Assembly (NCBI GenBank): GCA_023667045.1
Contig: JAMPAU010000002.1
Span: 248,001-312,000 of the forward strand
Source of the DNA: Ruminococcus flavefaciens
GTDB taxonomy: Bacteria; Bacillota; Clostridia; Oscillospirales; Ruminococcaceae
Direction: 5' to 3'
DNA length: 64,000 nt
In this document: positions 4,054 to 20,063 of the stretch, piece by piece
How the letters are laid out: every line of letters begins with the position of its first letter
Numbering within the stretch: position 1 is the stretch's first letter
Made by a program: the position numbers and the translations under genes
Notes under the pieces: generated by a model
What the model was told of the DNA's origin: nothing
Database searches by the model: none
What the model saw: the letters and a program-made list of their open reading frames with translations, nothing else

Positions 4054-5448
4054 ATGAACGAAAAAAACAAAACAGAATCAAATCCTTTGCAGACAGAATC
4101 GGTCTTCAGGCTGATGATTAAGTTTGCAATACCAAGTATACTGGGTATGCTTGTATCGTCACTGTATAATATTGTTGACCAGTTATTTATCGGTCATGCA
4201 GTGGGCATTGACGGAAACTCAGCTACAAATGTTGCCTTTCCTTTCACAACGGCGTGTACTGCCCTTGCCTTGCTTTTCGGTATAGGCGGTGCTTCATGTT
4301 TCAATCTTACTATGGGCAGGGGAGACAAAAAACAAGCAGGTTACTTTGCCGGAAACTCTTTCGCTCTGCTCGCCGTAAGCGGTATTATACTTAGTGCAGT
4401 AACGCTCATTTTCCTTAATCCTTTACTTAATATTTTCGGAGCTCCGAAAGGAATAGTAATGCAGTATGCACATGATTACGTTAAAGTAACGGCTATAGGC
4501 TTTCCGTTCTTGGTTTTCACAACCGGTGGCGGTCATCTTATACGTGCCGACGGCAGTCCGCAAATGGCTATGACTTGCAATATTATAGGTGCTGTTATAA
4601 ATACCGGTCTTGACGCTCTCTTTGTAATGGTTTTCCACTGGGGCATGAAAGGTGCAGCGTGGGCTACCGTTATCGGACAAATTGTATCTGCTGTAATCGT
4701 ATTTGTATATGCAATGCACTACAAAACTGTACCGCTCGGAAAAGAACACATAAAGATTAAATTTTTTACCGCAAGACGTATAGCCTCCATAGGAATGGCT
4801 TCATTCTTCAATCAGATAGCTATTGCAATAGTACAGATAGTCCTAAATAATTCACTTAAGCATTACGGTTCATTATCAGTATACGGAGATTCAGAACCTA
4901 TCGCAGTATGCGGTATTGTAATGAAAGTCAATATGATAGTATTCGCTATAGTTATCGGACTTGCTCAGGGTACTCAGCCTATTGAGAGTTTCAATTACGG
5001 TGCAAGGCAATACGGACGTGTACGCAGTGCCTACAAACTTGCTGTAACAGTCGGTGCGGTCGTATCAGTTATTGCGTTTATACTTTTCCATTTATTTCCG
5101 AGACAGATTCTTTCGCTTTTTGGAAGCGGTACTGATACATATTACGAACTCGGCGAAAAGTTCTTCAAGATATTCCTTTTCTTTACATGGCTTAACTGTC
5201 TACAGCCGATAACTTCAACTTTCTTTACCTCAATCGGCAAACCTATAAAGGGCGTTTTCCTGTCTCTTACAAGGCAGATAATTTTCTTTATACCATTCCT
5301 GCTTATATTACCGCACTTTTTCCAGTCTGGGATTGACGGAATAGTCTACACAGGTCCTACAGCGGACTTCCTCTCAGCTATTGTTGCTATTGCTATGGCT
5401 TTCTATGAGTTTCGCAATATACGCAAGCTGGAGGCAGAGGGAAAATAA
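4054..5448 (+). CDS. MATE-family multidrug/Na+ (or H+) antiporter
   Basis: The protein has 464 aa and about twelve hydrophobic segments, the normal size for MATE exporters. The two halves show the expected internal repeat: FAIPSILGMLVSSLYNIVDQLFIGH near the N-terminus and a GMASFFNQIAIAIVQIVLNN block after the middle loop. A GQ/TQP motif (AQGTQPIESFNYGAR) typical of DinF/NorM-like proteins is present. It exports cationic drugs or metabolites; the substrate is not predictable. Its ATG follows GAGG. The next gene starts 2 bp after its stop. Confidence 0.92.
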   Translation: MNEKNKTESNPLQTESVFRLMIKFAIPSILGMLVSSLYNIVDQLFIGHAVGIDGNSATNVAFPFTTACTALALLFGIGGASCFNLTMGRGDKKQAGYFAGNSFALLAVSGIILSAVTLIFLNPLLNIFGAPKGIVMQYAHDYVKVTAIGFPFLVFTTGGGHLIRADGSPQMAMTCNIIGAVINTGLDALFVMVFHWGMKGAAWATVIGQIVSAVIVFVYAMHYKTVPLGKEHIKIKFFTARRIASIGMASFFNQIAIAIVQIVLNNSLKHYGSLSVYGDSEPIAVCGIVMKVNMIVFAIVIGLAQGTQPIESFNYGARQYGRVRSAYKLAVTVGAVVSVIAFILFHLFPRQILSLFGSGTDTYYELGEKFFKIFLFFTWLNCLQPITSTFFTSIGKPIKGVFLSLTRQIIFFIPFLLILPHFFQSGIDGIVYTGPTADFLSAIVAIAMAFYEFRNIRKLEAEGK

Positions 5449-5450
5449 TT

Positions 5451-5984
5451 ATGTATTCTGCAAATGAAATCATGAATAACACTTCATTCTGGTATTACTT
5501 TCTAAGCGTTAATTTCCCGAATGCTTACGACGAAACCACAGATACGGATATTTCCGAAATAATCGAAGAATACAGTCCCGACAATGACTGGATTGACGAA
5601 TTTGTACAGTATTCAGACGAAATATTCAACCAAAATGACGGGTACGTCGATAACCCGAACACAATTGAACTTAATCTTAACGGTCATGACTTTAAGATTG
5701 AATTTCATGCAGGAGATACTGTCTATTTCCTTGACGGTCAGCAAATCGGCTGTACAGGCGGTCATTTTATTCTCGGTAAAATTGACTTTCAGCTTTTTTC
5801 TGAACTTACTCACGGCATTGCAGACAAAAGGATTTTTCTGCTTGTCATGCCTATGGTCTCGCTGAAAGATACAGATATTCCAAATGCAAGGAATATTATA
5901 CGGTCTGCTCTTGGTTTGCTGAAACTGAAAAAAGAACACATAAACAAAATAACTGATATGATTACTGACGGTTTATCAATATGA
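5451..5984 (+). CDS. Hypothetical acidic protein downstream of the MATE gene
   Basis: A soluble 177-aa protein with many Asp/Glu/Asn residues in its first half (DETTDTDISEIIEEYSPDNDW). It then has a strand-rich middle with YFLDGQQIGCTGGHF, and a helical C-terminus. No signal peptide or membrane segment is seen. Size, acidity and composition resemble the immunity/SUKH-like proteins common in Firmicutes, but this is only an impression and no toxin gene is adjacent. It begins 2 bp after the MATE stop with GAGGG upstream, so it is co-transcribed. A strong terminator follows. Confidence 0.7.
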   Translation: MYSANEIMNNTSFWYYFLSVNFPNAYDETTDTDISEIIEEYSPDNDWIDEFVQYSDEIFNQNDGYVDNPNTIELNLNGHDFKIEFHAGDTVYFLDGQQIGCTGGHFILGKIDFQLFSELTHGIADKRIFLLVMPMVSLKDTDIPNARNIIRSALGLLKLKKEHINKITDMITDGLSI

Positions 5985-5989
5985 AACAA

Positions 5990-6023
5990 AAAGGGTCTTC
6001 CTATGTATCGGAAGACCTTTTTT
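5990..6023 (+). terminator. Intrinsic terminator of the MATE operon
   Basis: A stem GGTCTTCC / GGAAGACC with a short loop is followed by six T. Confidence 0.9.
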
Positions 6024-6046
6024 ATACATAATATTCTATAAAATAA

Positions 6047-6078
6047 AAAAGTCCTCTGAAAATATCAGAAGACTTTCA
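6047..6078 (-). terminator. Terminator of tRNA-Gln
   Basis: Read on the minus strand, AAAGTCTTCTGA pairs with TCAGAGGACTTT (one mismatch), followed by a T tract. It lies directly downstream of the tRNA. Confidence 0.75.
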
Positions 6079-6080
6079 AA

Positions 6081-6156
6081 TGGTTGGAGTAGCTGGATTC
6101 GAACCAGCGAGATGACAGAGTCAAAGTCTGTTGCCTTACCGCTTGGCTATACCCCA
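6081..6156 (-). tRNA. tRNA-Gln (anticodon UUG)
   Basis: The 76-nt minus-strand sequence folds as a cloverleaf. The acceptor TGGGGTA pairs with TACTCCA, the discriminator is A, and the CCA end is encoded. The T-arm is GCTGG-TTCGAAT-CCAGC. The anticodon stem-loop CAGAC-TTTGACT-CTG places TTG at the anticodon. It reads CAA and, by wobble, CAG codons. Confidence 0.95.
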
Positions 6157-6228
6157 ATGTTACTAAACTATTATATCAGATTATCCGGAAAAAATCAAGA
6201 GGGTGGAGATATATTTTCTTTTTTTAAC

Positions 6229-6260
6229 AAAAAATACCGGCGTTTTCACACCGGTATTTG
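6229..6260 (-). terminator. Terminator of the CobW-like operon
   Basis: On the minus strand AAATACCGG / CCGGTATTT is followed by a run of T. It lies just past the stop of the 319-aa GTPase-like gene. Confidence 0.85.
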
Positions 6261-6266
6261 ATATAA

Positions 6267-7226
6267 TCAATAAAAAGTTGCTACTTCCTTTTCCGGAGGT
6301 GCAGACGGTGTATAGTCTGTAACAAACAATACAGGTCCTTTTCCACGATACAGCTTATGACGCTGAACTTTTATCTTTGCAGTAAGCATTATCCAGCTTT
6401 TTTCCTTGATTTTTGATATATCATCAAACTGTCCAACGCACCAGCAGTACTGTATATCATCAACACAGCAGGTCATTATATGCCGTCCGACAGCAAGCGT
6501 ATTTTTCGGGAATTTCGGATTTCTTGCAACTAATGCACGGAATGTTATTGTTTTACCGTCATATTTTTCCGGTTCTTCCATGATGTCACGATACCACAGT
6601 GCATAGTCGTTGTCGTTAATGATGATATGCGGTGCTTCAATGTCAAAGGGCAGTGGGTCTTCAATGTCGTCATATGCAACAGTTCCGTCGGTATATTCAT
6701 AGGCAATCTCACAGCGACGGCTTACACCCCTTACTATCTGGTGAAACTGGTTCGGGTCATAGCTTCTTTCAAAGCGATTAAATACCACGAGTTCACAGAC
6801 ATTGAACTTATCAACAACAAGGCTTCTCATATTCGCATTATACTGTGCAAAGGAAGTTGAATCGACAAAACACATAATCTGATAAAAAGCCCAGCCGTCC
6901 GGAGCAGCGTCAAAAAGTTCCGTAACCTGCCACATACCATTATATTCTATAACGATACGTTCAGCACTGCACTCATCAACAAGTCTTTGGAGATTTTCCG
7001 GTGTCATGTCGGATTTATCATCAACTACACGCAGGAAAATATTATCTTTTTCAAAGTCTGTCGTGTCATATTCTTCTTCGCCCTCCTCAAAGACAAGCAG
7101 GAGAGTTCTTTCACCAGTATTGAAACGCTTGTCTCCGAGAGTTTCCTGAATGAACTTTGTCTTACCGGATTCAAGAAATCCTAAAAACAGATACACGGGT
7201 ATTGTTTCTTCTTCATTGTAAGGCAT
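6267..7226 (-). CDS. CobW/G3E-like P-loop protein fused to a DUF1980 (YcgQ/TIGR03943-type) domain
   Basis: The protein has 319 aa. Residues 11-23 carry a Walker A loop (GFLESGKT) like G3E metallochaperone GTPases, and VFNRFE at 148-153 sits where the NKxD base-recognition motif is expected. The CxCC metal motif of that family is missing. Residues about 208-310 instead resemble DUF1980: YDGKTITFRALV, then FPKNTLAVGRHIMTCC (251-254) and WIMLTAKIKV. That domain is usually a separate protein encoded beside a YcgR/YraQ-type permease. The gene starts 13 bp after the His-rich CobW gene, with AGGAGG upstream. Together these suggest metal trafficking. The fusion call rests on motif reading. Confidence 0.75.
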   Translation of the reverse strand: MPYNEEETIPVYLFLGFLESGKTKFIQETLGDKRFNTGERTLLLVFEEGEEEYDTTDFEKDNIFLRVVDDKSDMTPENLQRLVDECSAERIVIEYNGMWQVTELFDAAPDGWAFYQIMCFVDSTSFAQYNANMRSLVVDKFNVCELVVFNRFERSYDPNQFHQIVRGVSRRCEIAYEYTDGTVAYDDIEDPLPFDIEAPHIIINDNDYALWYRDIMEEPEKYDGKTITFRALVARNPKFPKNTLAVGRHIMTCCVDDIQYCWCVGQFDDISKIKEKSWIMLTAKIKVQRHKLYRGKGPVLFVTDYTPSAPPEKEVATFY

Positions 7227-7239
7227 TCAGCAAACCTCC

Positions 7240-8364
7240 TTATTCAGCACAGAAAAGCTCTGCAATCGCCTTTTCGTTAATCTTTGAACCGATTACACAC
7301 AGTCTGCCTGTAGTGCCTGCACTTCCTCTGCGTACATCAGGCATATCCGGCACATAGTCAAAGTGAATCCATTCGCCGTCGCTTGCCGGAACAATTCCTT
7401 TTGCACGGAGAATCATACCGTAAGTATCAGAATCAGAGAGTTTTTCGAGAGCATTTCTGATTTCTTCTTCTGTGTACGGTTTAGCAGTCTCAACACCCCA
7501 GCTTGTGAATACATCATCTGCATGGTGGTGATGATGTTCGTGGTCGTGACAGCCACAAGTGCAGTCTTCACCGTGTTCATGCTCATGGTGATGGTGTTCG
7601 TGTTCTTCATTGTCATGGTCGTGGTGATGGTCGTGGTCGTGACAGCCACAGGTGCAGTCTTCACCGTGTTCATGGTCATGATGATGGTGTTCATGTTCTT
7701 CTTCATCATGGTGGTGATGATGATGTTCGTGCTGTTCATGGAGCAGGTGCTTTAACTCGTCGTCGAGAGTATTTTTCTGTGTCATAGCCTCGACAAGCTG
7801 TAATCCTGTAAGCTGTTCCCACTCAGTAGTAACGATAGGTGCTGACGGGTTGCACTCACGGAGACGTTTTACGCAGTCATCAAGCTTATCCTGTGAAAGT
7901 CCGCCGGTATGGCTGAGTATCAGACAGCTTGCATATGTTATCTGATTATTGAAGAACTCGCCGAAATTCTTCTGATACATCTTGCATTTCTTAGCGTCAA
8001 CGACTGTGGTGAATCCGTCAAGCTCAACATCGTGTGCGTCGATATTCTGAACTGCCTTTATAACGTCGCTGAGTTTGCCAACGCCGGAAGGTTCGATTAG
8101 GATTCTGTCGGGGTGGTACTGCTCAATAACCTGCTCCAGAGCCTTTCCGAAATCTCCCACAAGGCTACAGCAGATACAGCCGGAATTCATCTCGGTGATT
8201 TCGATTCCTGCGTCCTGAAGAAATCCGCCGTCAATGCCTATCTGTCCGAACTCGTTTTCAATAAGGACAAGCTTTTCACCCTTATATCCCTCTGAAATGA
8301 GTTTCTTGATGAGCGTGGTTTTTCCTGCACCAAGAAAGCCGGAAAAAATTGTGATTTTTGTCAT
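7240..8364 (-). CDS. CobW/COG0523 GTPase with His/Cys-rich metal-binding insert (zinc chaperone-like)
   Basis: The protein has 374 aa from the ATG at 8364; a TTG two codons upstream is also possible. It is a G3E-family metallochaperone GTPase: Walker A GFLGAGKTT at residues 9-17, the metal motif CICC at 63-66, and IEPSGVG. Between about residues 207 and 287 lies a His/Glu/Asp-rich stretch containing two copies of HGEDCTCGCHDH. This insert could hold several zinc or other transition-metal ions. The family includes YciC/ZNG1-type zinc-allocation proteins, but nickel or cobalt cannot be excluded. It is first in a two-gene operon. No Zur box was recognised by eye. Confidence 0.92.
   Translation of the reverse strand: MTKITIFSGFLGAGKTTLIKKLISEGYKGEKLVLIENEFGQIGIDGGFLQDAGIEITEMNSGCICCSLVGDFGKALEQVIEQYHPDRILIEPSGVGKLSDVIKAVQNIDAHDVELDGFTTVVDAKKCKMYQKNFGEFFNNQITYASCLILSHTGGLSQDKLDDCVKRLRECNPSAPIVTTEWEQLTGLQLVEAMTQKNTLDDELKHLLHEQHEHHHHHHDEEEHEHHHHDHEHGEDCTCGCHDHDHHHDHDNEEHEHHHHEHEHGEDCTCGCHDHEHHHHHADDVFTSWGVETAKPYTEEEIRNALEKLSDSDTYGMILRAKGIVPASDGEWIHFDYVPDMPDVRRGSAGTTGRLCVIGSKINEKAIAELFCAE
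7538..7703. repeat. Tandem 93-bp repeat encoding the His/Cys-rich segments
   Basis: Two in-frame copies of a roughly 70-bp conserved core are offset by exactly 93 bp (31 codons). For example, AGCCACA starts at 7551 and again at 7644. They encode the two CTCGC-His blocks of the CobW protein and differ by a few substitutions, consistent with an internal duplication. Confidence 0.8.
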
Positions 8365-8418
8365 ATACAAACACTTCTTTACTTTATATACTATCCCATA
8401 TATACAGGACGTAATTTT

Positions 8419-8447
8419 ATTATAGCACTATTTTCTGGAAAATGCAA
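8419..8447 (-). promoter_or_regulatory. Promoter of the CobW operon
   Basis: On the minus strand, TTGCAT and TATAAT are 17 bp apart, about 55 bp before the start codon. Confidence 0.65.
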
Positions 8448-8540
8448 GACCCCATGCATAAGTGCAACAAATTATCATCTTTTTATCATAATGCCATTCC
8501 TTATTAATATGAAAGAAATATGAAAACTTAAAAAAATCTA

Positions 8541-8569
8541 TGGAAATTTTTTTGGAATTATGTTATAAT
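8541..8569 (+). promoter_or_regulatory. Promoter of the oxaloacetate decarboxylase operon (extended -10)
   Basis: A weak -35 TGGAAA sits 17 bp from the -10 TATAAT. The -10 is preceded by TG, making an extended -10 that could compensate for the poor -35. Confidence 0.6.
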
Positions 8570-8600
8570 AACTACGTGAATTTATAAAGGAGGAATGTAC

Positions 8601-10004
8601 ATGAAAAAAGTACAGATTACAGAAACCGTCCTGCGTGACGCTAATCAGTCACTCATGGCTACCCGTCTGCCGTATTCCGATTATGAAGATATTCTGCCGG
8701 ATATGGACAAAGCAGGCTACTACTCGATTGAATGCTGGGGCGGTGCGACTTTTGATTCCTGTCTTCGCTATCTCAATGAAGACCCGTGGGAACGTCTAAG
8801 AAATCTGAGAAGACTTCTCCCAAATAACAGATTGCAGATGCTATTGAGAGGGCAGAATCTTCTCGGCTACAAACACTATCATGATGATGTGGTGGAAAAG
8901 TTTATAGAACTTTCTATCAAGAACGGTATCGACATAATACGTATTTTTGACGCTCTTAATGATTTCCGAAATCTCGGCACTGCCCTTGACGCTACCATGA
9001 AATATGCTACCCCTAAGACTATCGCTTCCGGCTGTATATCATATACTCAAAGTCCGGTGCATACTGTAGACAAGTACATTGAAATGTGCCGTGAACTCAA
9101 AAGAATGGGTTTTCAGACTATATGCCTTAAAGATATGGCTGGCACTATGACACCCTATGAAGCAGAAAGTCTCATCAAGGGAATAAAGGACGCTGTAGGC
9201 GATATTCCGCTTATTCTTCATACTCACTGTACTACCGGCATGGCTTACATGACACTCACTAAAGCTATAGAATCCGGCATAGATGTTATTGACTGTGCTT
9301 CATCATGCTTTTCCGGCGGTACTTCTCAGCCGTCAACAGAGACTATGTTCTATGCTTTACAGCAGTACGGCATTGAAACAGGTCTTGACGAAAATATTAT
9401 CAACAAGGTCAACGACTACTTCAAACCTATAAAGCAGAAATACGTTGACAGCGGTCAGATTAACCCCAAAAGCCTTTCTACAGACGCACAGGCTCTTGTA
9501 TACAAAGTACCCGGCGGTATGCTCTCAAATATGATTGCTAATCTTACCGATATGCACGCTATGGACAAGTTTGACGAGGCTTTAAAGGAAATTCCGGAAG
9601 TAAGAAAAGACCTCGGCTATCCTCCTCTTGTTACACCCCTTTCACAAATGGTAGGAAATCAAGCCGTAACTAACGTTCTTGTCGGCGAAAGATACAAGAA
9701 CATATCAAAGGAAATCAAAAACTACATCAAAGGCGAATACGGCACTGCACCTGCTCCGGTAAGTCAGGAACTTATCACTAAGGTTATCGGTGAGGGCGGT
9801 AAGCCTGTTGACTGTCGTATTGAAGACCAAAAACGCACAGGCGAGGAATTTGAATCAGCCCGTGAGGCTCTCGGCGATTTGGCACGCTCTGAAGAAGACA
9901 TCATGAGCTACATATGCTATCCCGACCAGACTATGAAATTCCTACAGTCTCGCCGTGAAAAAGAAGAAAACGAGGCTGTATATACTATTGAAGCTATCGA
10001 CTAA
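8601..10004 (+). CDS. oadA: Oxaloacetate decarboxylase (Na+ pump) alpha subunit, carboxyltransferase only
   Basis: The protein has 467 aa from the ATG at 8601, which has AGGAGG seven bases upstream; an earlier ATG at 8595 is too close to that site. The carboxyltransferase barrel is clear: RDANQSLMATR near the N-terminus, the FDALND segment, the Lys motif CLKDMAGTM, and the metal-binding HTHCTTGMA. It moves the carboxyl group of oxaloacetate to biotin, releasing pyruvate. Unlike the classic alpha chain of about 590 aa, it has no C-terminal biotin domain. That domain is encoded separately at 10362-10757. It is first gene of the oad operon. Confidence 0.93.
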   Translation: MKKVQITETVLRDANQSLMATRLPYSDYEDILPDMDKAGYYSIECWGGATFDSCLRYLNEDPWERLRNLRRLLPNNRLQMLLRGQNLLGYKHYHDDVVEKFIELSIKNGIDIIRIFDALNDFRNLGTALDATMKYATPKTIASGCISYTQSPVHTVDKYIEMCRELKRMGFQTICLKDMAGTMTPYEAESLIKGIKDAVGDIPLILHTHCTTGMAYMTLTKAIESGIDVIDCASSCFSGGTSQPSTETMFYALQQYGIETGLDENIINKVNDYFKPIKQKYVDSGQINPKSLSTDAQALVYKVPGGMLSNMIANLTDMHAMDKFDEALKEIPEVRKDLGYPPLVTPLSQMVGNQAVTNVLVGERYKNISKEIKNYIKGEYGTAPAPVSQELITKVIGEGGKPVDCRIEDQKRTGEEFESAREALGDLARSEEDIMSYICYPDQTMKFLQSRREKEENEAVYTIEAID

Positions 10005-12002: not shown

Positions 12003-12036
12003 AAAAGCTGTCGGATATTCTCCGGCAGTTTTTTTA
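12003..12036. terminator. Bidirectional terminator after oadB
   Basis: CTGTCGGA pairs with TCCGGCAG (one G-T pair), followed by seven T. A-rich sequence on the other side lets it also serve the convergent gene. Confidence 0.85.
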
Positions 12037-12465
12037 TTTATATATCATTATGCTTTTATTATATCTAAAGGCTTTATATATTATTTCTGATATATCGGGA
12101 TTTCCGGTATATTCTATGGTATAGTCTATTAGTTCGTCGTCGCCTTGCAGATAAATACTAAAACTATCCAGTCCGGAAACTCTTTTCAGAAACTTCATTA
12201 AAATATGGGATTCCAGTTTATCCGGACACCAGTATGCAGTGTTTCTTAAATCATATATCGCATTTGTGGTAAGCATAACAGGAGTATCAATATTTTCTGT
12301 GCTGTAGCTTGATGTTTCAAACTCTTTAAGTATCAGTGAATCTTCCGTTTCAAATTTTCGTGGAGTATGCGAATATTTTTCACCGCCCCAAAAAAATTTC
12401 ATCTCCTTTATTCCGGCAACTGAAAAATCTTTTTCAGATATTATTATATCAATATGGTAATCCAT
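12034..12465 (-). CDS. Hypothetical protein
   Basis: The product has 143 aa from the ATG at 12465. The open frame extends to a GTG at 12483, but that would leave almost no leader after the promoter at 12499-12527, and AAAGG fits the ATG better. It is soluble and strand-rich, beginning MDYHIDIIISEKDF and ending FRYNKSIMIYK, with FFWGGEKY and YWCPDKLES in between. No family was recognised. It is a single-gene unit convergent with the oad operon. Composition resembles other small unknown proteins scattered in this window. Confidence 0.65.
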   Translation of the reverse strand: MDYHIDIIISEKDFSVAGIKEMKFFWGGEKYSHTPRKFETEDSLILKEFETSSYSTENIDTPVMLTTNAIYDLRNTAYWCPDKLESHILMKFLKRVSGLDSFSIYLQGDDELIDYTIEYTGNPDISEIIYKAFRYNKSIMIYK

Positions 12466-12498
12466 AATATACCAGCCTTTCACTTTATGTCGGATATT

Positions 12499-12550: not shown

Positions 12551-12579
12551 TTGACATTTTATGCTTTTTGCATTATAAT
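12551..12579 (+). promoter_or_regulatory. Consensus sigma-A promoter of the DD-peptidase cluster
   Basis: A perfect TTGACA and a perfect TATAAT are separated by 17 bp, 31 bp before the ATG at 12611. This is one of the strongest promoters in the window. Confidence 0.8.
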
Positions 12580-12610: not shown

Positions 12611-13687
12611 ATGAAACAAGGACACAAAAAGAAAAAACAAATTTATTATCTGCAATCAGCTATATTCGTACTGTTACTGCTTATACTTATATATGGTATA
12701 CTGGTGGTTATTTCTTCTTGCAAGTCAGAAAAAAATAACATCACTGAAACTTCTGTACGCACAAGTACGGCGGTTCAGACACAGACGGAAACAACTACTG
12801 AATATACTGAAACTGTCACCGAAGCAACCGACGAACAGAAAAATATTTCTGCACGTCCTGAAAAAACTGATAAATCACAGCGTATAAGTCCGGATTATAA
12901 AGCCGGATACGCTTTACTTATGAACGCCGGTACGCATGAGGTTGCAGCATACAGAAATGCAAACGCCAGAATGTACCCTGCGTCTCTTACAAAGATAATG
13001 ACGCTTATTGTCGCCGTTGAGAATATTGAAGACCTTTCTGATACAGTTAAGATAACTGACGATATGGTCTTTCCTATGATAGAGCGTGACGCATCAAGAG
13101 CAGGTTTTCTGCCCGATGAAACACCCACGCTTGAAGACGCATTATACGGAATGATTCTCAGCTCCGGTGCAGATGCGGCACTCGCTGTCGCACAATATGT
13201 CGCAGGCTCTGAAGAGGCTTTCGTTGAACTTATGAACATGAAAGCCGGAGAGCTTGGGCTTAAAAGTACTCATTTCACTAATGTAGTTGGTCTCCATGAC
13301 AAGGAGCATTACAGCACAGCAACAGATATGGCGCTGATTCTGGAGTACGCAATTCAGAACGAAACCTGCCGGAAAATTATTTCTGCCTATGAGTACAAAG
13401 TCCCTCCTACAGAACAAAACCCTGAGGGGCTGACTTTTACGAGCATTTTTTTCAGCCGTATGTACGGCAATGAAATGCCCGATGTTACAATACAAGGAGG
13501 TAAAACCGGTTTTACTGTAAAAGCTAAAAACTGTATGGGTAGCTTTGCTGAAATCAATGGAGAAACATACATTCTTATTCTGTGCGGATATTCGGACAGG
13601 TGGAATGCTGTATATGATACTCTCAGCATTTACAGCGTATACGGAGCAGGCGGTGAAAAATACGTCTCCGAAAACAGTAAAAGCTGA
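12611..13687 (+). CDS. D-alanyl-D-alanine carboxypeptidase (S11, DacA/DacF family), membrane-anchored
   Basis: The protein has 358 aa from the ATG at 12611 (AGAGG upstream). A Lys-rich N-terminus precedes one membrane segment (about 13-36), and a Thr/Glu linker follows. The S11 peptidase domain keeps the nucleophile motif SLTK (S125, K128) and KTG (298-300). The second motif reads SGA (185-187) rather than the usual SxN. It trims the terminal D-Ala from peptidoglycan stem peptides and so limits cross-linking. It has its own consensus promoter and a terminator. Two degenerate peptidase homologues follow on the same strand. Confidence 0.9.
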   Translation: MKQGHKKKKQIYYLQSAIFVLLLLILIYGILVVISSCKSEKNNITETSVRTSTAVQTQTETTTEYTETVTEATDEQKNISARPEKTDKSQRISPDYKAGYALLMNAGTHEVAAYRNANARMYPASLTKIMTLIVAVENIEDLSDTVKITDDMVFPMIERDASRAGFLPDETPTLEDALYGMILSSGADAALAVAQYVAGSEEAFVELMNMKAGELGLKSTHFTNVVGLHDKEHYSTATDMALILEYAIQNETCRKIISAYEYKVPPTEQNPEGLTFTSIFFSRMYGNEMPDVTIQGGKTGFTVKAKNCMGSFAEINGETYILILCGYSDRWNAVYDTLSIYSVYGAGGEKYVSENSKS

Positions 13688-13702
13688 TGATTCCTAAACC
13701 GG

Positions 13703-13729
13703 TAATGAATAACTCGTTATTCATTTTTT
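13703..13729 (+). terminator. Intrinsic terminator after the first DD-carboxypeptidase
   Basis: AATGAATAA / TTATTCATT with a 4-nt loop is followed by T residues. Confidence 0.75.
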
Positions 13730-13766
13730 GCCTCCGGATAGTGCATAAAATTTCGGAGGAATTATA

Positions 13767-14714
13767 ATGGGAAAACCACGCCTCAGAAAAGGTCGCTTTA
13801 TTGCTTCAATATTTATAATGGTATTGGTTATCTTCGCTACAGACGGCATGAAAAGAGCCGTGCTTGAACATATGAATCTATATGGCTCTGACAGGGCTAT
13901 TGTTGTACGTCAGGAGGGAAGTATAAGAAAACCCGCTGAAATCAGCTATACAATAACCGGAAATGATGAAAGTCAGAACTCCGGATTTTCAGAGCTGAAT
14001 ATAGATTCGTCTAAGCTTGTTTCCGGTGAGCTTATAATGGTTAATAATAATCTGCCGTATGTATCGCCGGAAATACCAGCCACTGTTGACCTTATACATT
14101 ACAGAAATGATTACTACACACTTATAAATGAAACAGATTCCGTTATCCTTAATACAGAGGCAGCCAATGCCCTCAATCTTATGATGGCGGATTATTACAG
14201 TTCTACCGGACAGGCAAATTTCCTTGTTTACGGTACTACTGATACATACACCGGAGAGGGTTCTTACTGTCCGCAGTTCTTTCCGGAATCGGCAACAGGA
14301 AATACGGTGGATTTGGCGGTTAATGTCGGCAGTTCGGTTTTTACCTATGACGGCTGTGACGTTGAAAAATGGATTGTTGAAAACTGCCATAATTATGGGT
14401 ATATTATAAGGTTTCCGGCAAGAAAAGCCGAAATAACAGGCTCGGATTTCTGCCCGTGGCATCTCCGCTATGTCGGAAAAATTCACGCCACTGTAATGAA
14501 AAAGCTGAATTACTGCCTTGAAGAATATCTGAGTTTTCTTAGCGGATATACTTTTGACCACCCGCTTTCATACAATCTTGACGGTACTATGTACTCGATA
14601 TATACCGTGAAATCAACAGGTGAAACTACTCCTGTGCAAGTGCCGTCTTCCGGCAGTTATACAATTTCCGGCAACAATACTGACAGCTTTATTATAACGT
14701 CAGTCAAGTTTTAA
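13767..14714 (+). CDS. VanY-like D,D-peptidase homologue with substituted catalytic residues (probable pseudoenzyme)
   Basis: The protein has 315 aa with an N-terminal membrane/signal segment (residues 11-25). The C-terminal half matches the M15/VanY fold by its CPWHLRYVGK motif (229-238) and a strand TVDLAVNV (180-187). In active VanY/LdcB enzymes these blocks read SxHxxGxAxD and ExWH. Here the expected zinc His and Asp are N179 and N186, the catalytic Glu is C229, and only H232 survives. The protein is therefore unlikely to be a normal zinc carboxypeptidase. It may bind D-Ala-D-Ala or act as a regulator. It lies between two S11-type genes. The fold call is by motif only. Confidence 0.7.
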   Translation: MGKPRLRKGRFIASIFIMVLVIFATDGMKRAVLEHMNLYGSDRAIVVRQEGSIRKPAEISYTITGNDESQNSGFSELNIDSSKLVSGELIMVNNNLPYVSPEIPATVDLIHYRNDYYTLINETDSVILNTEAANALNLMMADYYSSTGQANFLVYGTTDTYTGEGSYCPQFFPESATGNTVDLAVNVGSSVFTYDGCDVEKWIVENCHNYGYIIRFPARKAEITGSDFCPWHLRYVGKIHATVMKKLNYCLEEYLSFLSGYTFDHPLSYNLDGTMYSIYTVKSTGETTPVQVPSSGSYTISGNNTDSFIITSVKF

Positions 14715-14778
14715 TCATTTTTTCCGTAATACCCGATACGCTTCCCTCATATATATTCAGAAAAGGGAGGCGGTACAT

Positions 14779-15930
14779 TTGAAAAATATTCTGAAAAAGA
14801 TAACGGCGGTGCTTACTGCACTGCTGATATCCGCACTGTTTATTTCTGCTGACAAGGCTGAAGATGCTCAGGAAAAATATTCGGCTCATATTCTGATAGA
14901 AGCACGCACAGGTGCTGTCCTTGATGAGTATAACGCTGATTTGCGTATGAATGCAGGCTACATGACCAAGCTGATGTCGCTGATTCTGATAGCGGAGGAT
15001 ATTGAGAAAGGCAAATACACAACAGGCACTGTTATGACAGCGTCGCAGGCTGTCGCCGGTACTGACGGTGCTGTGGTGTGGATTGAGCCGGACGAAAATA
15101 TTACCGTTGACGAACTGCTGAAGGCTGTGATTGTCGGCAATGCAAACGACGCAATGACGGTTCTTGCTGAATATTCCGAGCAATCTGTTGAGGATTTTGT
15201 TATGCGTATGAACAGTGAAGCTTTTGACCTCGGTCTGCGAAATACCGCTTTTTATTCGCCTTATGGGTATTATGATGAGCGGGAATACACAACCGCACAC
15301 GATTTGGCTATAATCTGTGCGAAACTCTCTGAGTATGATGCTTTAGAGCCATATTTCTGTCTCTGGCGTGACTTTGTCAGAGACGGAAAGGCAGAGCTTG
15401 TAAGCGAAAATACACTTTCACGTACTTACGACCGCCACATCGGCTTTAAAGCGTCACATTCTGAAAAATCCGGCTACTGCATTGCAGAGGGCGGAAGAAA
15501 CGACGAGGGAAATGTTTATATTTCTGTAGTTCTTGGTGCTGAAAATGACGATATATCAATGAGCAAGGCTAAGGAACTTATCAACAGGGGATTCAGCGGT
15601 TTTCATGTTATGGCTACTATGTTCCCCGATGAAATGCTTATGCCTGTAAAAGTAAAAAACGGCGTTGAGCTGGCTGTTGAAATATGTCTGAAAAACCAAA
15701 GCAATTTAGTTGTGCCGAAAAGCGTAAGCGAACTGAATACAGTAGTTGTACTGCCGGAATACCTTACAGCACCACTCAAAAAAGGGCAGGTGATAGGCTC
15801 GGCAGGATTCTACAGCGGTGATACGCTGGTGTGCGAAACTGACATTATTGTGAAAAATAACGTGAAAGCTCTTTCTTTCGGTTATTCTTTTAAGAAAATT
15901 TTGTCTAATATTATCAAAAAACAGGGTTGA
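14779..15930 (+). CDS. DacF-like (S11) secreted protein lacking all three active-site motifs (probable pseudoenzyme)
   Basis: The protein has 383 aa from a TTG start with GGGAGG eight bases upstream. A signal peptide covers about residues 1-24. The S11 domain aligns well along its length with the carboxypeptidase at 12.6 kb (for example LRMNAGYMTKLMS against ARMYPASLTKIMT). The nucleophile Ser is Y61 (YMTK), the SxN motif is NAN (121-123), and KTG is KAS (224-226). A C-terminal beta domain typical of DacF (residues about 290-345) and a final amphipathic helix (FKKILSNIIKK) for membrane attachment remain. Peptidase activity is not expected; a binding or scaffolding role is inferred. Confidence 0.8.
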   Translation: MKNILKKITAVLTALLISALFISADKAEDAQEKYSAHILIEARTGAVLDEYNADLRMNAGYMTKLMSLILIAEDIEKGKYTTGTVMTASQAVAGTDGAVVWIEPDENITVDELLKAVIVGNANDAMTVLAEYSEQSVEDFVMRMNSEAFDLGLRNTAFYSPYGYYDEREYTTAHDLAIICAKLSEYDALEPYFCLWRDFVRDGKAELVSENTLSRTYDRHIGFKASHSEKSGYCIAEGGRNDEGNVYISVVLGAENDDISMSKAKELINRGFSGFHVMATMFPDEMLMPVKVKNGVELAVEICLKNQSNLVVPKSVSELNTVVVLPEYLTAPLKKGQVIGSAGFYSGDTLVCETDIIVKNNVKALSFGYSFKKILSNIIKKQG

Positions 15931-16051: not shown

Positions 16052-17386
16052 ATGTCTTTAAAACTCAATACAAAATATCTCGGCGATTTTATTAACTGTG
16101 ATGAACTCGCAGGCATAAAGGCTCAGGTTGAGGCTGCCGCTGATTCTCTCCACAAGAAAAACGGTCTCGGAAATGATTTTCTCGGCTGGGTTGAACTTCC
16201 TACAAATTACGACAAGGAAGAATTTGAAAGAATCAAGTCCGCTGCTGAAAAAATCAAGAATAATTCAGATATTCTTATCGTTATCGGTATCGGCGGTTCA
16301 TATCTCGGTGCAAGAGCAGCTATCGAACTCCTCAAATCGCCCCTTTACAATAACATGAAAAAAGATACCCCCGACATCTACTATGTCGGAAACAGCATTA
16401 ATCCTACATACCTTAATGAAATTATCGCACTCTGCAAGGATAAGGATTTCTCTGTAAACGTTATCTCAAAGTCCGGCACTACTACAGAACCTGCTCTCGC
16501 TTTCAGAATCTTCAAGAAAATGGTTGAAGAAAAGTACGGCAAGAAAGAAGCTAAAAACCGTATCTTTGCTACTACAGACAAGGCAAGAGGAACTCTCAAA
16601 AACCTCTCCGACGCTGAGGGCTATGAGACTTTCGTTATTCCTGACGATGTAGGCGGACGTTTTTCTGTTCTCACTGCTGTTGGTCTTCTCCCGATTGCTG
16701 TTGCCGGCTGTGATATTGATAAGCTCATGGCAGGTGCAAGAAAGGCTCAGAATGATTTCTGTGCAGATTTCGACAACAATGACTGCTACAAGTATGCAGC
16801 ACTCAGAAATATTCTCTACAGAAAGGGCAAGTCCGTTGAAATGCTCGTTTCTTATGACCCAAGCTTTGTTATGATGTCTGAATGGTACAAGCAACTTTTC
16901 GGCGAGAGCGAAGGCAAGGACAATAAGGGCATTTTCCCGTCTTCTGCTGTATTCTCAACAGACCTGCACTCTATGGGTCAGTATATTCAGGACGGTGCAA
17001 GAATCCTCTTTGAGACTGTTGTTGATATAAAGAATCCGAAGACCGACCTCTTCCTTGAACCAGATGCAGAAAACCTTGATGGTCTCAACTTCCTCACAAA
17101 TCAGAATATGTCTGTTGTAAACAGAAAGGCTTTCGAGGGTACTGTTCTTGCTCACACTGAGGGCGGAGTTCCGAATATTATTCTTGAACTTGACGATACT
17201 ACTGAAGAAAGCGTCGGCTATATGATTTATTTCTTTGAAAAAGCCTGTGCTGTTTCCGGATACGTTCTTGGCGTTAATCCGTTCAATCAGCCCGGTGTTG
17301 AGAGCTATAAGTCAAATATGTTCGCACTTCTTGGCAAACCCGGCTATGAGGGTGCAAAGGCTGAACTTGAGGCAAAGCTCGGCTGA
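16052..17386 (+). CDS. pgi: Glucose-6-phosphate isomerase
   Basis: The protein has 444 aa from the ATG at 16052 (GGAGG eight bases upstream). The open frame extends 18 codons further up, but without a ribosome site. It interconverts glucose 6-phosphate and fructose 6-phosphate in glycolysis. The sugar-phosphate motifs are clear: [29 protein letters not shown], and the catalytic region [14 protein letters not shown]. The length is that of the short Firmicutes enzyme. It is monocistronic, with its own promoter. Confidence 0.97.
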
Positions 17387-17506: not shown

Positions 17507-17914
17507 ATGATTAAACTGATTACCGGAAAAAAAGGTACAGGCAAAACAAAGGTTCTTATCGACCAGATTAATGAATCTGTAAAATCCACAAACGGCAGTG
17601 TCGTATGTGTTGAAAAAGGCTCAACTGTAAGATATTCTATCAGCCGTAAGGCAAGATGGTGCGATACAGAATACTACAACGTTGAGGGCTATGAGGCTTT
17701 CTATGGCTTTATCGCTGGTCTTCTTGCAAGCAACTACGATATTACCGACATATACGTTGACGGTATCTTCAAAATCGGCGGTCGTGATTACGAGACTTTC
17801 GGCAAAATGCTTGAAAAGATTGACAAGCTCACCGGCGAAGACGTTTCCGTTGTATTCACCGTTTCTGCTGACGTTGAAGAACTCTCTGAAAACGTAAAGC
17901 AGTTTATCAAGTAA
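17507..17914 (+). CDS. Small P-loop protein of unknown role
   Basis: The protein has 135 aa and begins MIKLITGKKGTGKTKVLID, a clear Walker A loop (GKKGTGKT, residues 7-14). The rest has the alternating strand/helix pattern of a small nucleotide-binding fold, including SVVCVEKGS, ITDIYVDGIFKI and VSVVFTVSAD, where Walker-B-like acidic residues follow hydrophobic strands. It is too short for most known NTPase families and has no partner domain. It is monocistronic with a strong promoter and a structured leader, which suggests substantial expression. The function is unknown. Confidence 0.8.
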   Translation: MIKLITGKKGTGKTKVLIDQINESVKSTNGSVVCVEKGSTVRYSISRKARWCDTEYYNVEGYEAFYGFIAGLLASNYDITDIYVDGIFKIGGRDYETFGKMLEKIDKLTGEDVSVVFTVSADVEELSENVKQFIK

Positions 17915-17981: not shown

Positions 17982-18013
17982 ATATTTTATGATGCTCTGA
18001 AGGGTTTTTGCGT

Positions 18014-18469
18014 ATGAAAATTAATTTAAAACAACTTTTCAATATTGTAGGGGAATCCAAAGATATATGCTATTCTATAGGCGAGGACGAGCTTTCTGTC
18101 ATTCACGGCTACAGCTTTTCTTCTCCGGTAAAGGTAAAAGGAAAAATTTTTAACCGTGCCGGAATTGTCTACCTTGAATACGCTGTTGATTTTTCCCTCT
18201 CTGTTACCTGTGACAGATGTCTCAAAGAATTTGAAAGGGAATATTCCTTTGATTTCTCTCATATTGTCGTCCCCTCTGTAAGCAATGATAACGATGAGTA
18301 TATTGTTGCCGACAGTGAGAGCATTGAACTAAATGAAATTGCTTTTACTGACCTGCTGTTACAGCTTCCGTCAAAGAATCTTTGCAAAGATGACTGCAAG
18401 GGTCTATGTATGGTCTGTGGCTGTGACCTCAATGTCTCTGATTGCAATTGTCTCAATTCTGAGCTGTGA
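18014..18469 (+). CDS. YceD/DUF177 family protein, ribosome-associated
   Basis: The protein has 151 aa from the ATG at 18014 (AGGG nine bases upstream; a TTG six bases earlier is too close). It shows the YceD pattern: VTCDRCLKEFEREYSFDF in the middle, and near the end DLLLQLPSKNLCKDDCKGLCMVCGCDLN, a Cys-rich block. Proteins of this family sit upstream of rpmF in most bacteria and are linked to 23S rRNA maturation or ribosome assembly. The downstream gene here is indeed rpmF, 27 bp away. Confidence 0.9.
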   Translation: MKINLKQLFNIVGESKDICYSIGEDELSVIHGYSFSSPVKVKGKIFNRAGIVYLEYAVDFSLSVTCDRCLKEFEREYSFDFSHIVVPSVSNDNDEYIVADSESIELNEIAFTDLLLQLPSKNLCKDDCKGLCMVCGCDLNVSDCNCLNSEL

Positions 18470-18761: not shown

Positions 18762-20063
18762 ATGGTTAAAATCAAGAGCATAATTCATGGTTCTCCTGCT
18801 GAACGTATGGGCGTTCTGCCGGAAGATACCCTGTTTTCTATAAACGGTCAGGAAATTCATGACGTGCTTGATTATATGTTTTATGCCGCAGAAACTTCCG
18901 TTTCTCTCGAAATTATCCGAAATGACGAAAAATTTTCAGTCCCTATCGAAAAAGATGAATACGACGACATTGGTCTTGAATTTGATACTTTCCTAATGGA
19001 CTCAAAACAGTCTTGCCGTAATAAGTGCGTTTTCTGCTTTATCGACCAAATGCCACCTAATATGCGTGAAACTCTCTACTTTAAGGACGACGACGCTCGT
19101 CTCTCTTTCCTGCAAGGAAATTATGTCACTCTCACTAATCTTGAACAGTCTGACATTGACAGAATTATTAAAATGAAACTTAATATAAACGTCTCCGTGC
19201 ATACTACAAATCCGGAACTGCGTGTCAAGATGATGCATAACCGCTTTGCCGGCGAAAAGCTTAAATACATCTATCAGCTTGCCGAAAACGGTATACAGCT
19301 GAACTGTCAGATTGTATGCTGTCCGAATCTCAACGACGGCGACGAGCTAAGGCGTTCACTGACAGATTTAGGCGGACTTATGCCGAATATATCAAGCATG
19401 GCTGTTGTACCTGTCGGTCTTACAAAATTCCGTAAAGGTCTGTTTCCGCTGACAACGTTCACTCCGGAAAAAGCAGGAGAGACTATTGATATAATAGCAG
19501 AGTTTCAGGAAATTTTTCTGGAAAAATACGGCACGAGAACTGTTTTTCCGTCAGACGAGTTCTTTCTTATTGCAGAGCGTGAACTTCCGCCTATGGAATA
19601 CTATGAAGATTTTCCGCAGTATGAAAACGGCGTGGGTATGATGCGTTCGCTTATTGACGAATTTGAAAAGGCTCTGGAAATAGCTGAATGGGAGGGCAGA
19701 AAACGTCACGTCTCGATAGCTACAGGATATTCAGCTTATCCGGTGATAAAATCTCTTGCGGAAAAGGCTGAAAAATATTTCCCTATGCTTAAATGCGATA
19801 TTTACCGGATAAGAAACGACTTTTTCGGGGAGACTATTACTGTTACCGGACTTATTACCGCTCAGGATTTAATAGCACAGCTTAAAGACAAAAATCTCGG
19901 CGATAATCTTCTCATCTCGTCTTCCATGCTTATGCGTGACAATGAAATTTTTCTTGATGACCTTACAGTAACAGACGTTGAAAACGCTCTGGGCGTAAAA
20001 ATAAGGCACACCCCTAATGACGGATATGAACTTCTTGACGCAATTATGGGAATTACTTACTGA
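18762..20063 (+). CDS. PDZ plus radical-SAM protein with DUF512 domain
   Basis: The protein has 433 aa. Residues 1-70 form a PDZ-like module (SIIHGSPAERMGVLPEDTLFSINGQEI). A radical SAM cluster motif follows, CRNKCVFC with the FIDQMP extension, then the DUF512 C-terminal part (for example FPSDEFFLIAERELPP and the CDIYRIRNDFFGETITVTGLIT region). The family is widespread in Firmicutes and usually sits upstream of der, exactly as here (der starts 23 bp later). Its substrate is not established. AGGAGG supports the start. Confidence 0.9.
   Translation: MVKIKSIIHGSPAERMGVLPEDTLFSINGQEIHDVLDYMFYAAETSVSLEIIRNDEKFSVPIEKDEYDDIGLEFDTFLMDSKQSCRNKCVFCFIDQMPPNMRETLYFKDDDARLSFLQGNYVTLTNLEQSDIDRIIKMKLNINVSVHTTNPELRVKMMHNRFAGEKLKYIYQLAENGIQLNCQIVCCPNLNDGDELRRSLTDLGGLMPNISSMAVVPVGLTKFRKGLFPLTTFTPEKAGETIDIIAEFQEIFLEKYGTRTVFPSDEFFLIAERELPPMEYYEDFPQYENGVGMMRSLIDEFEKALEIAEWEGRKRHVSIATGYSAYPVIKSLAEKAEKYFPMLKCDIYRIRNDFFGETITVTGLITAQDLIAQLKDKNLGDNLLISSSMLMRDNEIFLDDLTVTDVENALGVKIRHTPNDGYELLDAIMGITY

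What the first reader, a model, noticed from the sequence alone, without database searches (positions are those of the whole stretch)
12611..15930. DD-peptidase cluster with two catalytically dead homologues next to one active-looking enzyme
Three secreted peptidoglycan-peptidase-like proteins lie in a row. The first keeps SLTK and KTG. The second (VanY-like) has Asn, Asn and Cys where zinc His, zinc Asp and catalytic Glu are expected. The third (DacF-like) has YMTK for SxxK, NAN for SxN and KAS for KTG. Both frames are full length, with good starts and export signals, so decay to pseudogenes is unlikely. Two unrelated peptidase folds losing their active sites side by side suggests a selected non-catalytic role. 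Possible roles are sensing D-Ala-D-Ala termini, holding or activating the first enzyme, or antibiotic/lipid II binding.
Basis: partly seen in the sequence, partly recalled or inferred. Interest (0 to 1): 0.72.

Follow-up and report, generated by a model that had tools for sequence, protein, structure and literature searches.

The report
Conserved dead cell-wall peptidases in Ruminococcus
Ruminococcus and other genera of its family keep, in a fixed place in the genome, a cell-wall enzyme look-alike that lost its cutting site once long ago and was preserved anyway; in Ruminococcus a second dead cell-wall enzyme of unrelated fold usually sits next door, which suggests that these proteins bind the wall or a partner instead of cutting it.

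Summary
Gene 1 (12611-13687) keeps SLTK and KTG (SGA for SxN). Gene 2 (13767-14714, VanY/VanXY-G fold) has Ser for the zinc His and Cys for the catalytic Glu, but keeps the zinc Asp and second zinc His (not Asn/Asn/Cys). Gene 3 (14779-15930, PBP5/DacF fold) has YMTK, NAN, KAS. Decay is unlikely: homologues are full-length single frames; median dN/dS is 0.11 (gene 3), 0.26 (gene 2), 0.19 (gene 1).

New here: gene 3 is the positional orthologue of a live DacF (22 of 22 other families read have intact motifs; pgi follows in 7). It lost its site once (100/99 support) in an ancestor of at least 26 genera of one family; the nucleophile position drifts, both pocket lysines stay. Gene 2-type dead VanY proteins occur in five other such genera, but beside dacF only in Ruminococcus among 70 family loci read. 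Gene 1 is absent from 38 of 70 assessable loci. Two further dead families (S11, VanY) sit elsewhere in the genus. Best reading: a membrane-tethered, non-acylating peptidoglycan reader/adaptor in the style of EnvC/NlpD/DipM. Dead and conserved is well supported; ligand and partner are inferred.

The parts
12551..12579 (+). perfect sigma-70-type promoter, TTGACA - 17 nt - TATAAT, just upstream of gene 1
   Evidence: 12 of 12 hexamer matches (the scan's total of 11 sites is no more than its shuffles give, mean 10.6; the perfect score and the position single this one out)
12611..13687 (+). gene 1: Peptidase_S11 with SLTK, SGA, KTG; lipobox-like VISSC (by eye); likely live; present in only part of the loci
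   Evidence: Pfam PF00768 1.5e-46; motif counts 33 of 33; start ATG 12611 after GAGGTG (sequence); absent from 38 of 70 assessable loci
13767..14714 (+). gene 2: VanY/VanXY-G-fold pseudoenzyme with an N-terminal hydrophobic helix
   Evidence: PF02557 3.1e-9; NF000472 3.8e-34 but far below its cut-off; 4f78 by sequence and fold; model helix 8-38; 65 homologues
14268..14270 (+). Cys168 codon of gene 2, conserved in 62 of 65
14289..14291 (+). Ser175 codon of gene 2, where the first zinc His is expected; non-His in 65 of 65
14310..14312 (+). Asp182 codon of gene 2, zinc Asp kept in 65 of 65
14451..14453 (+). Cys229 codon of gene 2, where the catalytic Glu is expected; Cys in 62 of 65
14460..14462 (+). 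His232 codon of gene 2, second zinc His kept in 65 of 65
14779..15930 (+). gene 3: DacF/PBP5-fold pseudoenzyme with N-terminal hydrophobic segment, S11 domain, PBP5_C domain and C-terminal helix; TTG start
   Evidence: PF00768 1.3e-35 and PF07943 1.6e-10; AF2 pLDDT 88.3, best fold match PBP6 3it9
14959..14970 (+). YMTK in place of SxxK
   Evidence: position 61 is T/S/H/Y/A/M/V in 54 NAN-type rows, Lys64 54 of 54
15139..15147 (+). NAN in place of SxN
   Evidence: 27 of 27 genus proteins read; SxN kept in 22 of 22 other families read. Asn121 and Ala122 define the NAN label used
15448..15456 (+). KAS in place of KTG
   Evidence: Lys 54 of 54, Ala 48 of 54 NAN-type rows; KTG in 22 of 22 other families read
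16052..17386 (+). pgi, glucose-6-phosphate isomerase: synteny anchor directly downstream of gene 3
   Evidence: NF010697 4.9e-209; within 600 bases of gene 3 in 76 of 80 named loci, other 4 at contig ends
17507..17914 (+). synteny anchor of unknown family (P-loop-like start, recalled)
   Evidence: no Pfam or NCBIfam hit; recurrent position
18008..18469 (+). yceD (PF02620): synteny anchor
   Evidence: 9.2e-18
18762..20063 (+). PDZ / radical SAM-like / DUF512 protein: synteny anchor
   Evidence: PF04459 3.9e-77

Best explanation
Gene 3 is the direct, in-place descendant of a live DacF-type D-Ala-D-Ala carboxypeptidase of the order (supported by position and tree). It lost the catalytic motifs once in an ancestor of at least 26 genera and was kept (supported by sequence). 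It now works as a membrane-tethered, non-acylating protein whose remodelled pocket (both lysines and Asn121 fixed; nucleophile position free) binds a peptidoglycan stem peptide or a protein partner without cutting it (inferred). In Ruminococcus a second dead peptidase of unrelated fold, gene 2, came to lie next to it, and the two act together (inferred from clustering) as a wall-reading adaptor that recruits, shields or tunes live wall enzymes, of which gene 1 is one optional member. This is the principle of the dead LytM-domain regulators EnvC, NlpD and DipM, carried out with DD-peptidase folds.
For: Positional orthology: of 24 other families of the order searched, DacF stretches were read from 22; 22 of 22 have intact SxxK, S[AG]N and KTG, and pgi follows directly in 7; pgi follows gene 3 in 76 of 80 named loci, the other 4 ending at contig edges. 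Single loss: 54 NAN-type rows form one side of a branch, 100/99, 100% of 200 bootstrap trees, against 43 live and 2 intermediate rows. Constraint: NAN-type rows keep Lys64 54/54, Lys224 54/54, Ala225 48/54, while position 61 is T19 S12 H10 Y9 A2 M1 V1. Purifying selection on 21 common pairs: median dN/dS gene 3 0.110, gene 2 0.257, gene 1 0.190, pgi 0.033; gene 3 below gene 1 in 20 of 21. Integrity: the 30 gene-2 and 27 gene-3 genus matches given as loci all show no stop inside. Folds: gene 3 model pLDDT 88.3, best match PBP6; gene 2 model 86.2, best match VanXYg, TM by target length 0.80. Clustering: gene 2-type dead proteins in five other NAN-type genera (98/92), but a gene-2 match near dacF only in the 2 Ruminococcus stretches among 70 family stretches. 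Precedents: DipM (PMC10336132, abstract); Sonic Hedgehog as an M15 pseudopeptidase (PMC11266112, passages).
Against: No binding, localisation or phenotype data exist here. In E. coli a PBP5 S44G mutant is more evenly dispersed and seldom at septa (PMC2909392, abstract and passages), so losing the serine alone need not leave a useful wall binder. 12 of 54 NAN-type rows keep Ser and 19 have Thr at position 61, so residual chemistry in other genera is not excluded, nor a replacement nucleophile (model coordinates could not be inspected). Gene 2 is not always beside gene 3: of 80 loci it was not found in 10 with more than 2,500 bases upstream, distant or divergent in 4, not assessable in 6; in G024, G027 and G028 genes 1 and 2 are together and gene 3 is on another contig, in G015 no close gene 3 was found, and in G001 genes 2 and 3 are on different contigs. 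In G036, of another family, a live-looking VanY lies about 1.8 kb from a live DacF on the other strand, so the neighbourhood may recur by chance or for other reasons. Gene 2 is the least constrained of the three. Gene 2 keeps Asp182 and His232 and gains Cys229, so it may still bind a metal.
Confidence: 0.48

Rival explanations
1. The dead proteins, gene 2 above all, are dedicated partners or chaperones of gene 1, the live-looking DD-carboxypeptidase in front of them.
For: Same strand, short gaps, one perfect promoter before gene 1; trio complete in the same order in 30 of 80 loci, plus 2 with genes 1 and 2 divergent from gene 3; genes 1 and 2 adjacent while gene 3 is elsewhere or not found in G015, G024, G027 and G028.
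Against: Gene 1 is absent from 38 of 70 assessable loci, 27 of which keep gene 2 close before gene 3; only distant S11 matches to gene 1 in whole genomes such as G007 and G034. Gene 3's dead form is older than the trio.
Confidence: 0.2
2. Gene 3 (and perhaps gene 2) is catalytic by other means: another nucleophile in the S11 pocket, or a Cys/Asp/His metal site in gene 2.
For: Lys64, Asn121, Asn123 and Lys224 of gene 3 are kept in 81 of 81 (partly circular for the asparagines); Ser or Thr at position 61 in 31 of 54 NAN-type rows; gene 2 keeps Asp182 and His232 in 65 of 65 and Cys229 in 62 of 65.
Against: Position 61 is also His, Tyr, Ala, Met or Val (23 of 54), and SxN and KTG are altered as well; gene 2 lost both the first zinc His and the catalytic Glu, and its GYRS loop became YGTT with a gap.
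Confidence: 0.12
3. Binding proteins for an antibiotic (beta-lactam or glycopeptide decoys or sensors) rather than for the bacterium's own wall.
For: Both folds belong to families that handle D-Ala-D-Ala and its mimics.
Against: The serine that traps beta-lactams is gone from gene 3 in the window; gene 3's locus holds housekeeping genes (pgi, yceD) across the family sample; none of the seven neighbouring frames scanned matches a regulator family.
Confidence: 0.08
4. Slowly decaying relics kept by chance.
For: Gene 2 evolves faster than the others; gene 3 has a long stem branch (1.35).
Against: Full-length frames, dN/dS 0.11 and 0.26, invariant pocket lysines, preserved order.
Confidence: 0.02

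Closest known systems
DacF / PBP5-type low-molecular-mass PBPs (Peptidase_S11, PF00768 + PBP5_C, PF07943)
   Same: Two-domain fold and C-terminal helix; best solved matches E. coli PBP6 and PBP5; same chromosomal place as live DacF in 7 of 22 families read
   Different: All three catalytic motifs changed in gene 3; it should not be acylated by penicillin (inference)
VanXY-G / VanY-A,F,M type M15 carboxypeptidases
   Same: Fold including the C-terminal beta part
   Different: First zinc His and catalytic Glu lost; GYRS substrate loop replaced; score far below the curated cut-off (118.2 against 425 bits)
Degenerate LytM regulators (DipM; EnvC and NlpD recalled)
   Same: Dead wall peptidases kept as regulators of live wall hydrolases (DipM abstract, PMC10336132)
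   Different: Different fold (LytM); partners known there, unknown here
Sonic Hedgehog N-domain
   Same: M15-type fold whose signalling does not need the putative catalytic residues (passages of PMC11266112; weak Foldseek hits, E about 0.1)
   Different: Animal signalling protein that keeps the full His-Asp-His zinc site; gene 2 has lost one zinc ligand

Membership tests
Live DacF/PBP5 DD-carboxypeptidase (S11) | S11 domain plus PBP5_C domain | tested here: met
   PF00768 1.3e-35, PF07943 1.6e-10; fold
Live DacF/PBP5 DD-carboxypeptidase (S11) | SxxK, SxN and KTG catalytic motifs | tested here: not met
   YMTK, NAN, KAS; 81 sequences
Live DacF/PBP5 DD-carboxypeptidase (S11) | Positional orthology with live DacF of the order | tested here: met
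Live DacF/PBP5 DD-carboxypeptidase (S11) | Penicillin acylation and D-Ala release | not testable with these tools
   needs protein
VanY/VanXY M15 metallo-carboxypeptidase (gene 2) | M15 fold with C-terminal part | tested here: met
VanY/VanXY M15 metallo-carboxypeptidase (gene 2) | His-Asp-His zinc ligands | tested here: not met
   first His absent in 65 of 65; Asp and second His kept
VanY/VanXY M15 metallo-carboxypeptidase (gene 2) | Catalytic Glu before the second zinc His | tested here: not met
   Cys in 62 of 65, Tyr 2, Ala 1
Dead-peptidase wall regulator (EnvC/NlpD/DipM principle) | Degenerate active site in a conserved wall-peptidase fold | tested here: met
Dead-peptidase wall regulator (EnvC/NlpD/DipM principle) | Binds and stimulates a live wall hydrolase | not testable with these tools
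   no partner known
Dead-peptidase wall regulator (EnvC/NlpD/DipM principle) | LytM domain | tested here: not met
   domains and folds are S11 and VanY/M15

The most novel reading that the evidence does not exclude
Ruminococcus and its relatives run a standing layer of non-cutting wall readers built from DD-peptidase folds: a DacF that died once and stayed in place through at least 26 genera, a dead VanY brought beside it, and in Ruminococcus a second dead S11 and a second dead VanY family elsewhere (at least three separate losses). Together they read D-Ala-D-Ala stem peptides or crosslink state and so steer live wall enzymes, a reader module beside the known writers and erasers of the wall.
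Probability: 0.25. Interest if true: 0.85.

Novelty: new variant of a known kind. Interest (0 to 1): 0.7.

Why it matters
Dead LytM-fold regulators are an established theme in wall biology. A dead low-molecular-mass PBP kept across 26 genera of one family, in the place of a live enzyme, did not turn up in the listings of seven paper searches (lists capped, open-licence papers only). Annotation by fold would probably count these proteins as carboxypeptidases, and gene 2 as VanY-like, so wall-enzyme and resistance surveys may miscount them (inference). Live and dead forms at one locus within one family make a natural experiment on how an enzyme becomes a binding protein.

Tried and rejected
Pseudogene decay: rejected as unlikely. 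Gene 1 as obligate partner: weakened, not excluded. Inactivation specific to Ruminococcus: my own first view after the genus and order searches, rejected once the family was sampled. A disulphide between Cys168 and Cys229 of gene 2: not supported, since each is lost without the other (Cys/Cys 60, Tyr/Cys 2, Cys/Tyr 2, Ile/Ala 1 of 65). Gene 2 and the second dead VanY family as sisters: one tree joins them (86/81), a second separates them; left open. A first dN/dS run for pgi was out of register and was repeated (then 82). The promoter scan finds no more sites than shuffles overall.

Limits and dropped rows. The 80 named loci are the best 80 of 204, found with two peptide patterns one of which contains GNANDA, so the NAN count in that set is partly circular. 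The frames counted were cut at stops and kept above a score (500 bits gene 3, 300 genes 1 and 2); no gene-2 or gene-3 hit fell below it, two gene-1 hits did (L163, L175). That no stop lies inside them is so by construction; the integrity argument is that they span nearly the whole profile, save one cut by a contig end (L141). In one search two of the genus gene-3 matches (G231, G339) are flagged with one stop inside; I did not read them. The family sample (47 of 70 stretches NAN-type, 21 live, 2 other) was drawn from the better matches. NAN and LIVE are labels defined by the motifs, so Asn121 and Ala122 in NAN rows, and Ser/Ser/KTG in live rows, hold by definition. Two of 24 other families (G039, G054; weak matches) were not read; some outgroup stretches end near the contig edge. 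Family adjacency was read as the order of tblastn hits within stretches of about 5-13 kb; genes in between were not excluded. The GNANDA pattern rings in 142 of 396 family genomes and its reversed control in 19 by my count; the places were not all checked against the dacF locus. Co-occurrence of gene 2-type proteins with NAN-type DacF rests on 16 loci read of the best matches, no full presence/absence test.
Full report
Check of the observation. The three frames are where the finding puts them. Gene 1 starts at ATG 12611 behind GAGGTG, gene 2 at 13767 behind GGAGG, gene 3 at TTG 14779 behind GGGAGG (sequence), and a perfect TTGACA-17-TATAAT promoter lies at 12551-12579. Gene 1 is Peptidase_S11, gene 2 VanY, gene 3 Peptidase_S11 plus PBP5_C. 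Gene 3 has YMTK, NAN and KAS. Gene 1 keeps SLTK and KTG and has SGA in place of SxN, in 33 of 33 sequences (one position of SLTK, the Thr, varies in 3); a same-order homologue (G058) also has SGA, so I take it as the normal state of that branch.

Conservation in the genus. Among 36 same-genus genomes, 30 have a close gene 2 (E up to 1e-45) and 27 a close gene 3. Of the nine without a full gene 3, seven are 64-83% complete (G016 among them with a fragment at a contig end); G010 (96%, gene 2 at a contig end) and G015 (91%) are the exceptions. In the 27 gene-3 proteins read, position 61 is Tyr in 25 and Phe in 2, NAND is present in 27 and K-A in 26. A scan of named genomes returned 80 loci, 72 titled Ruminococcus by my count, among them several R. 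flavefaciens strains. With the window, gene 3 lacks the SxN Ser and the KTG motif in 81 of 81 and the SxxK Ser in 80 of 81, while both lysines are kept in 81; gene 2 lacks the zinc His in 65 of 65, has Cys for Glu in 62, and keeps Asp and the second His in 65. That scan used a pattern containing GNANDA, so its NAN count is partly circular.

Gene order. In the 80 loci, pgi lies within 600 bases downstream of gene 3 in 76 (the other 4 end at the contig edge). Gene 2 is close upstream on the same strand in 60, elsewhere in the stretch in 4, not found in 10 and not assessable in 6. Gene 1 is present in 32, absent in 38 and not assessable in 10. Gene 3-pgi is thus the most stable bond, gene 2-gene 3 common, gene 1 an option in this set; whole-genome search gave only distant S11 matches to gene 1 in near-complete genomes such as G007 and G034. 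Against a simple pair: in G024, G027 and G028 genes 1 and 2 are together while gene 3 is on another contig, in G015 they are together and no close gene 3 was found, and in G001 genes 2 and 3 are on different contigs.

Where gene 3 comes from. One genome from each of 24 other families of the order was searched and the DacF stretch of 22 was read; SxxK, S[AG]N and KTG are intact in 22 of 22, and pgi follows directly in 7. G058 and G043 share dacF, pgi, the 17507 gene, yceD and the DUF512 gene with the window. Gene 3 therefore sits in the place of a live enzyme. A search of 396 genomes of the window's own family and 70 stretches read from it give 47 NAN-type, 21 live and 2 intermediate proteins; pgi is the next hit downstream in 41 of the 47 (divergent in 3, not seen in 3) and in 14 of the 21 live ones. 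A tree of 99 rows makes the 54 NAN-type rows one side of a branch (100/99, 100% of 200 bootstrap trees), spanning 26 genera. The strict GNANDA pattern occurs in 142 of 396 family genomes, its reversed control in 19 by my count. In NAN-type rows position 61 is T19, S12, H10, Y9, A2, M1, V1, while Lys64 and Lys224 are 54 of 54 and Ala225 48 of 54. That is what loss of chemistry with a kept pocket looks like.

Where gene 2 comes from. Gene 2-type dead VanY proteins form a clade (98/92; 7 rows from Ruminococcus, 7 from g29, g46, g47, g76 and g125, all NAN-type genera), yet no gene-2 match was seen near dacF in the 68 family stretches outside Ruminococcus. Two proteins that were apart in the relatives read are usually neighbours in Ruminococcus, the best sequence argument for a shared task. 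Its strength is limited: 16 loci of the best matches were read, and in G036, of another family, a live-looking VanY lies about 1.8 kb from a live DacF on the other strand.

Selection. On 21 pairs among 7 genomes with all genes, median dN/dS is 0.110 (gene 3), 0.257 (gene 2), 0.190 (gene 1) and 0.033 (pgi); gene 3 is lower than gene 1 in 20 of 21 pairs. Synonymous distances are high (medians 0.77-1.23), so the values are rough. The dead DacF is more constrained than the live-looking enzyme beside it.

Structure. AlphaFold2 models are good (gene 3 pLDDT 88.3; gene 2 86.2). Gene 3 matches PBP6 and PBP5 over most of its length; gene 2 matches VanXYg (TM by target length 0.80, by query 0.65) and, weakly, Hedgehog domains.

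Two more dead families in the genus. A second S11 protein has lost the Ser and Lys of SxxK and the Asn of SxN in 25 of 25 read (KTG kept in 4), from 30 genus genomes searched. A second VanY family has Tyr for the first zinc His and neither the catalytic Glu nor the second zinc His in 27 of 27 read, from 30 genus genomes searched. A live-looking VanXY-G-like paralogue (SEHESG, YEPWH) and two live-looking S11 proteins besides gene 1 remain in the window's genome.

Mechanism. Supported: orthology, single loss in gene 3, retained fold, retained pocket lysines, purifying selection, frequent clustering of two dead folds. Inferred: the pocket binds a stem peptide or partner; the pair acts as an adaptor for live wall enzymes. 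Precedents are DipM (PMC10336132, abstract and section list seen) and Sonic Hedgehog (PMC11266112, passages seen). A caution is PBP5 S44G, which is seldom found at septa (PMC2909392, abstract and passages seen). The listings of the paper searches (one search was for Hedgehog) showed nothing that describes these proteins; several lists were capped and most subscription papers are not in that library.

Verdict. New variant of a known kind, interest 0.7.

Noticed in passing
G000:C24:1360140-1361348 (L233); L233-L257: A second dead S11 family in Ruminococcus: SxxK Ser and Lys lost and SxN Asn lost in 25 of 25 read, KTG kept in 4; the window genome's copy ends in a hydrophobic segment and keeps similar neighbours in G000 and G034.
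   Followed up: partly
G000:C24:909592-910374 (L263); L263-L289: A second dead VanY family in Ruminococcus that mostly keeps a GYRS-like loop but lost the first zinc His, the second zinc His and the catalytic Glu in 27 of 27 read.
   Followed up: partly
L351 (G142), L404 (G066): Possible half-way states at the dacF-pgi locus: ASLNK/SAND/KYG and GSLTK/TSAND/KTA; both group with live proteins in the tree.
   Followed up: no
L112, L119 (and G033 C60): Genes 1 and 2 on the strand opposite to gene 3, divergent from it: an alternative arrangement of the trio.
   Followed up: no
L301 (G036) 5069-8660: In another family a live-looking VanY gene lies about 1.8 kb from a live DacF, on opposite strands.
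   Followed up: no
window 17507-17914: A small conserved gene between pgi and yceD with no Pfam or NCBIfam match that recurs there in other families of the order.
   Followed up: no
window 12034-12483, minus strand: A 149-aa frame divergent from gene 1 with no Pfam match.
   Followed up: no
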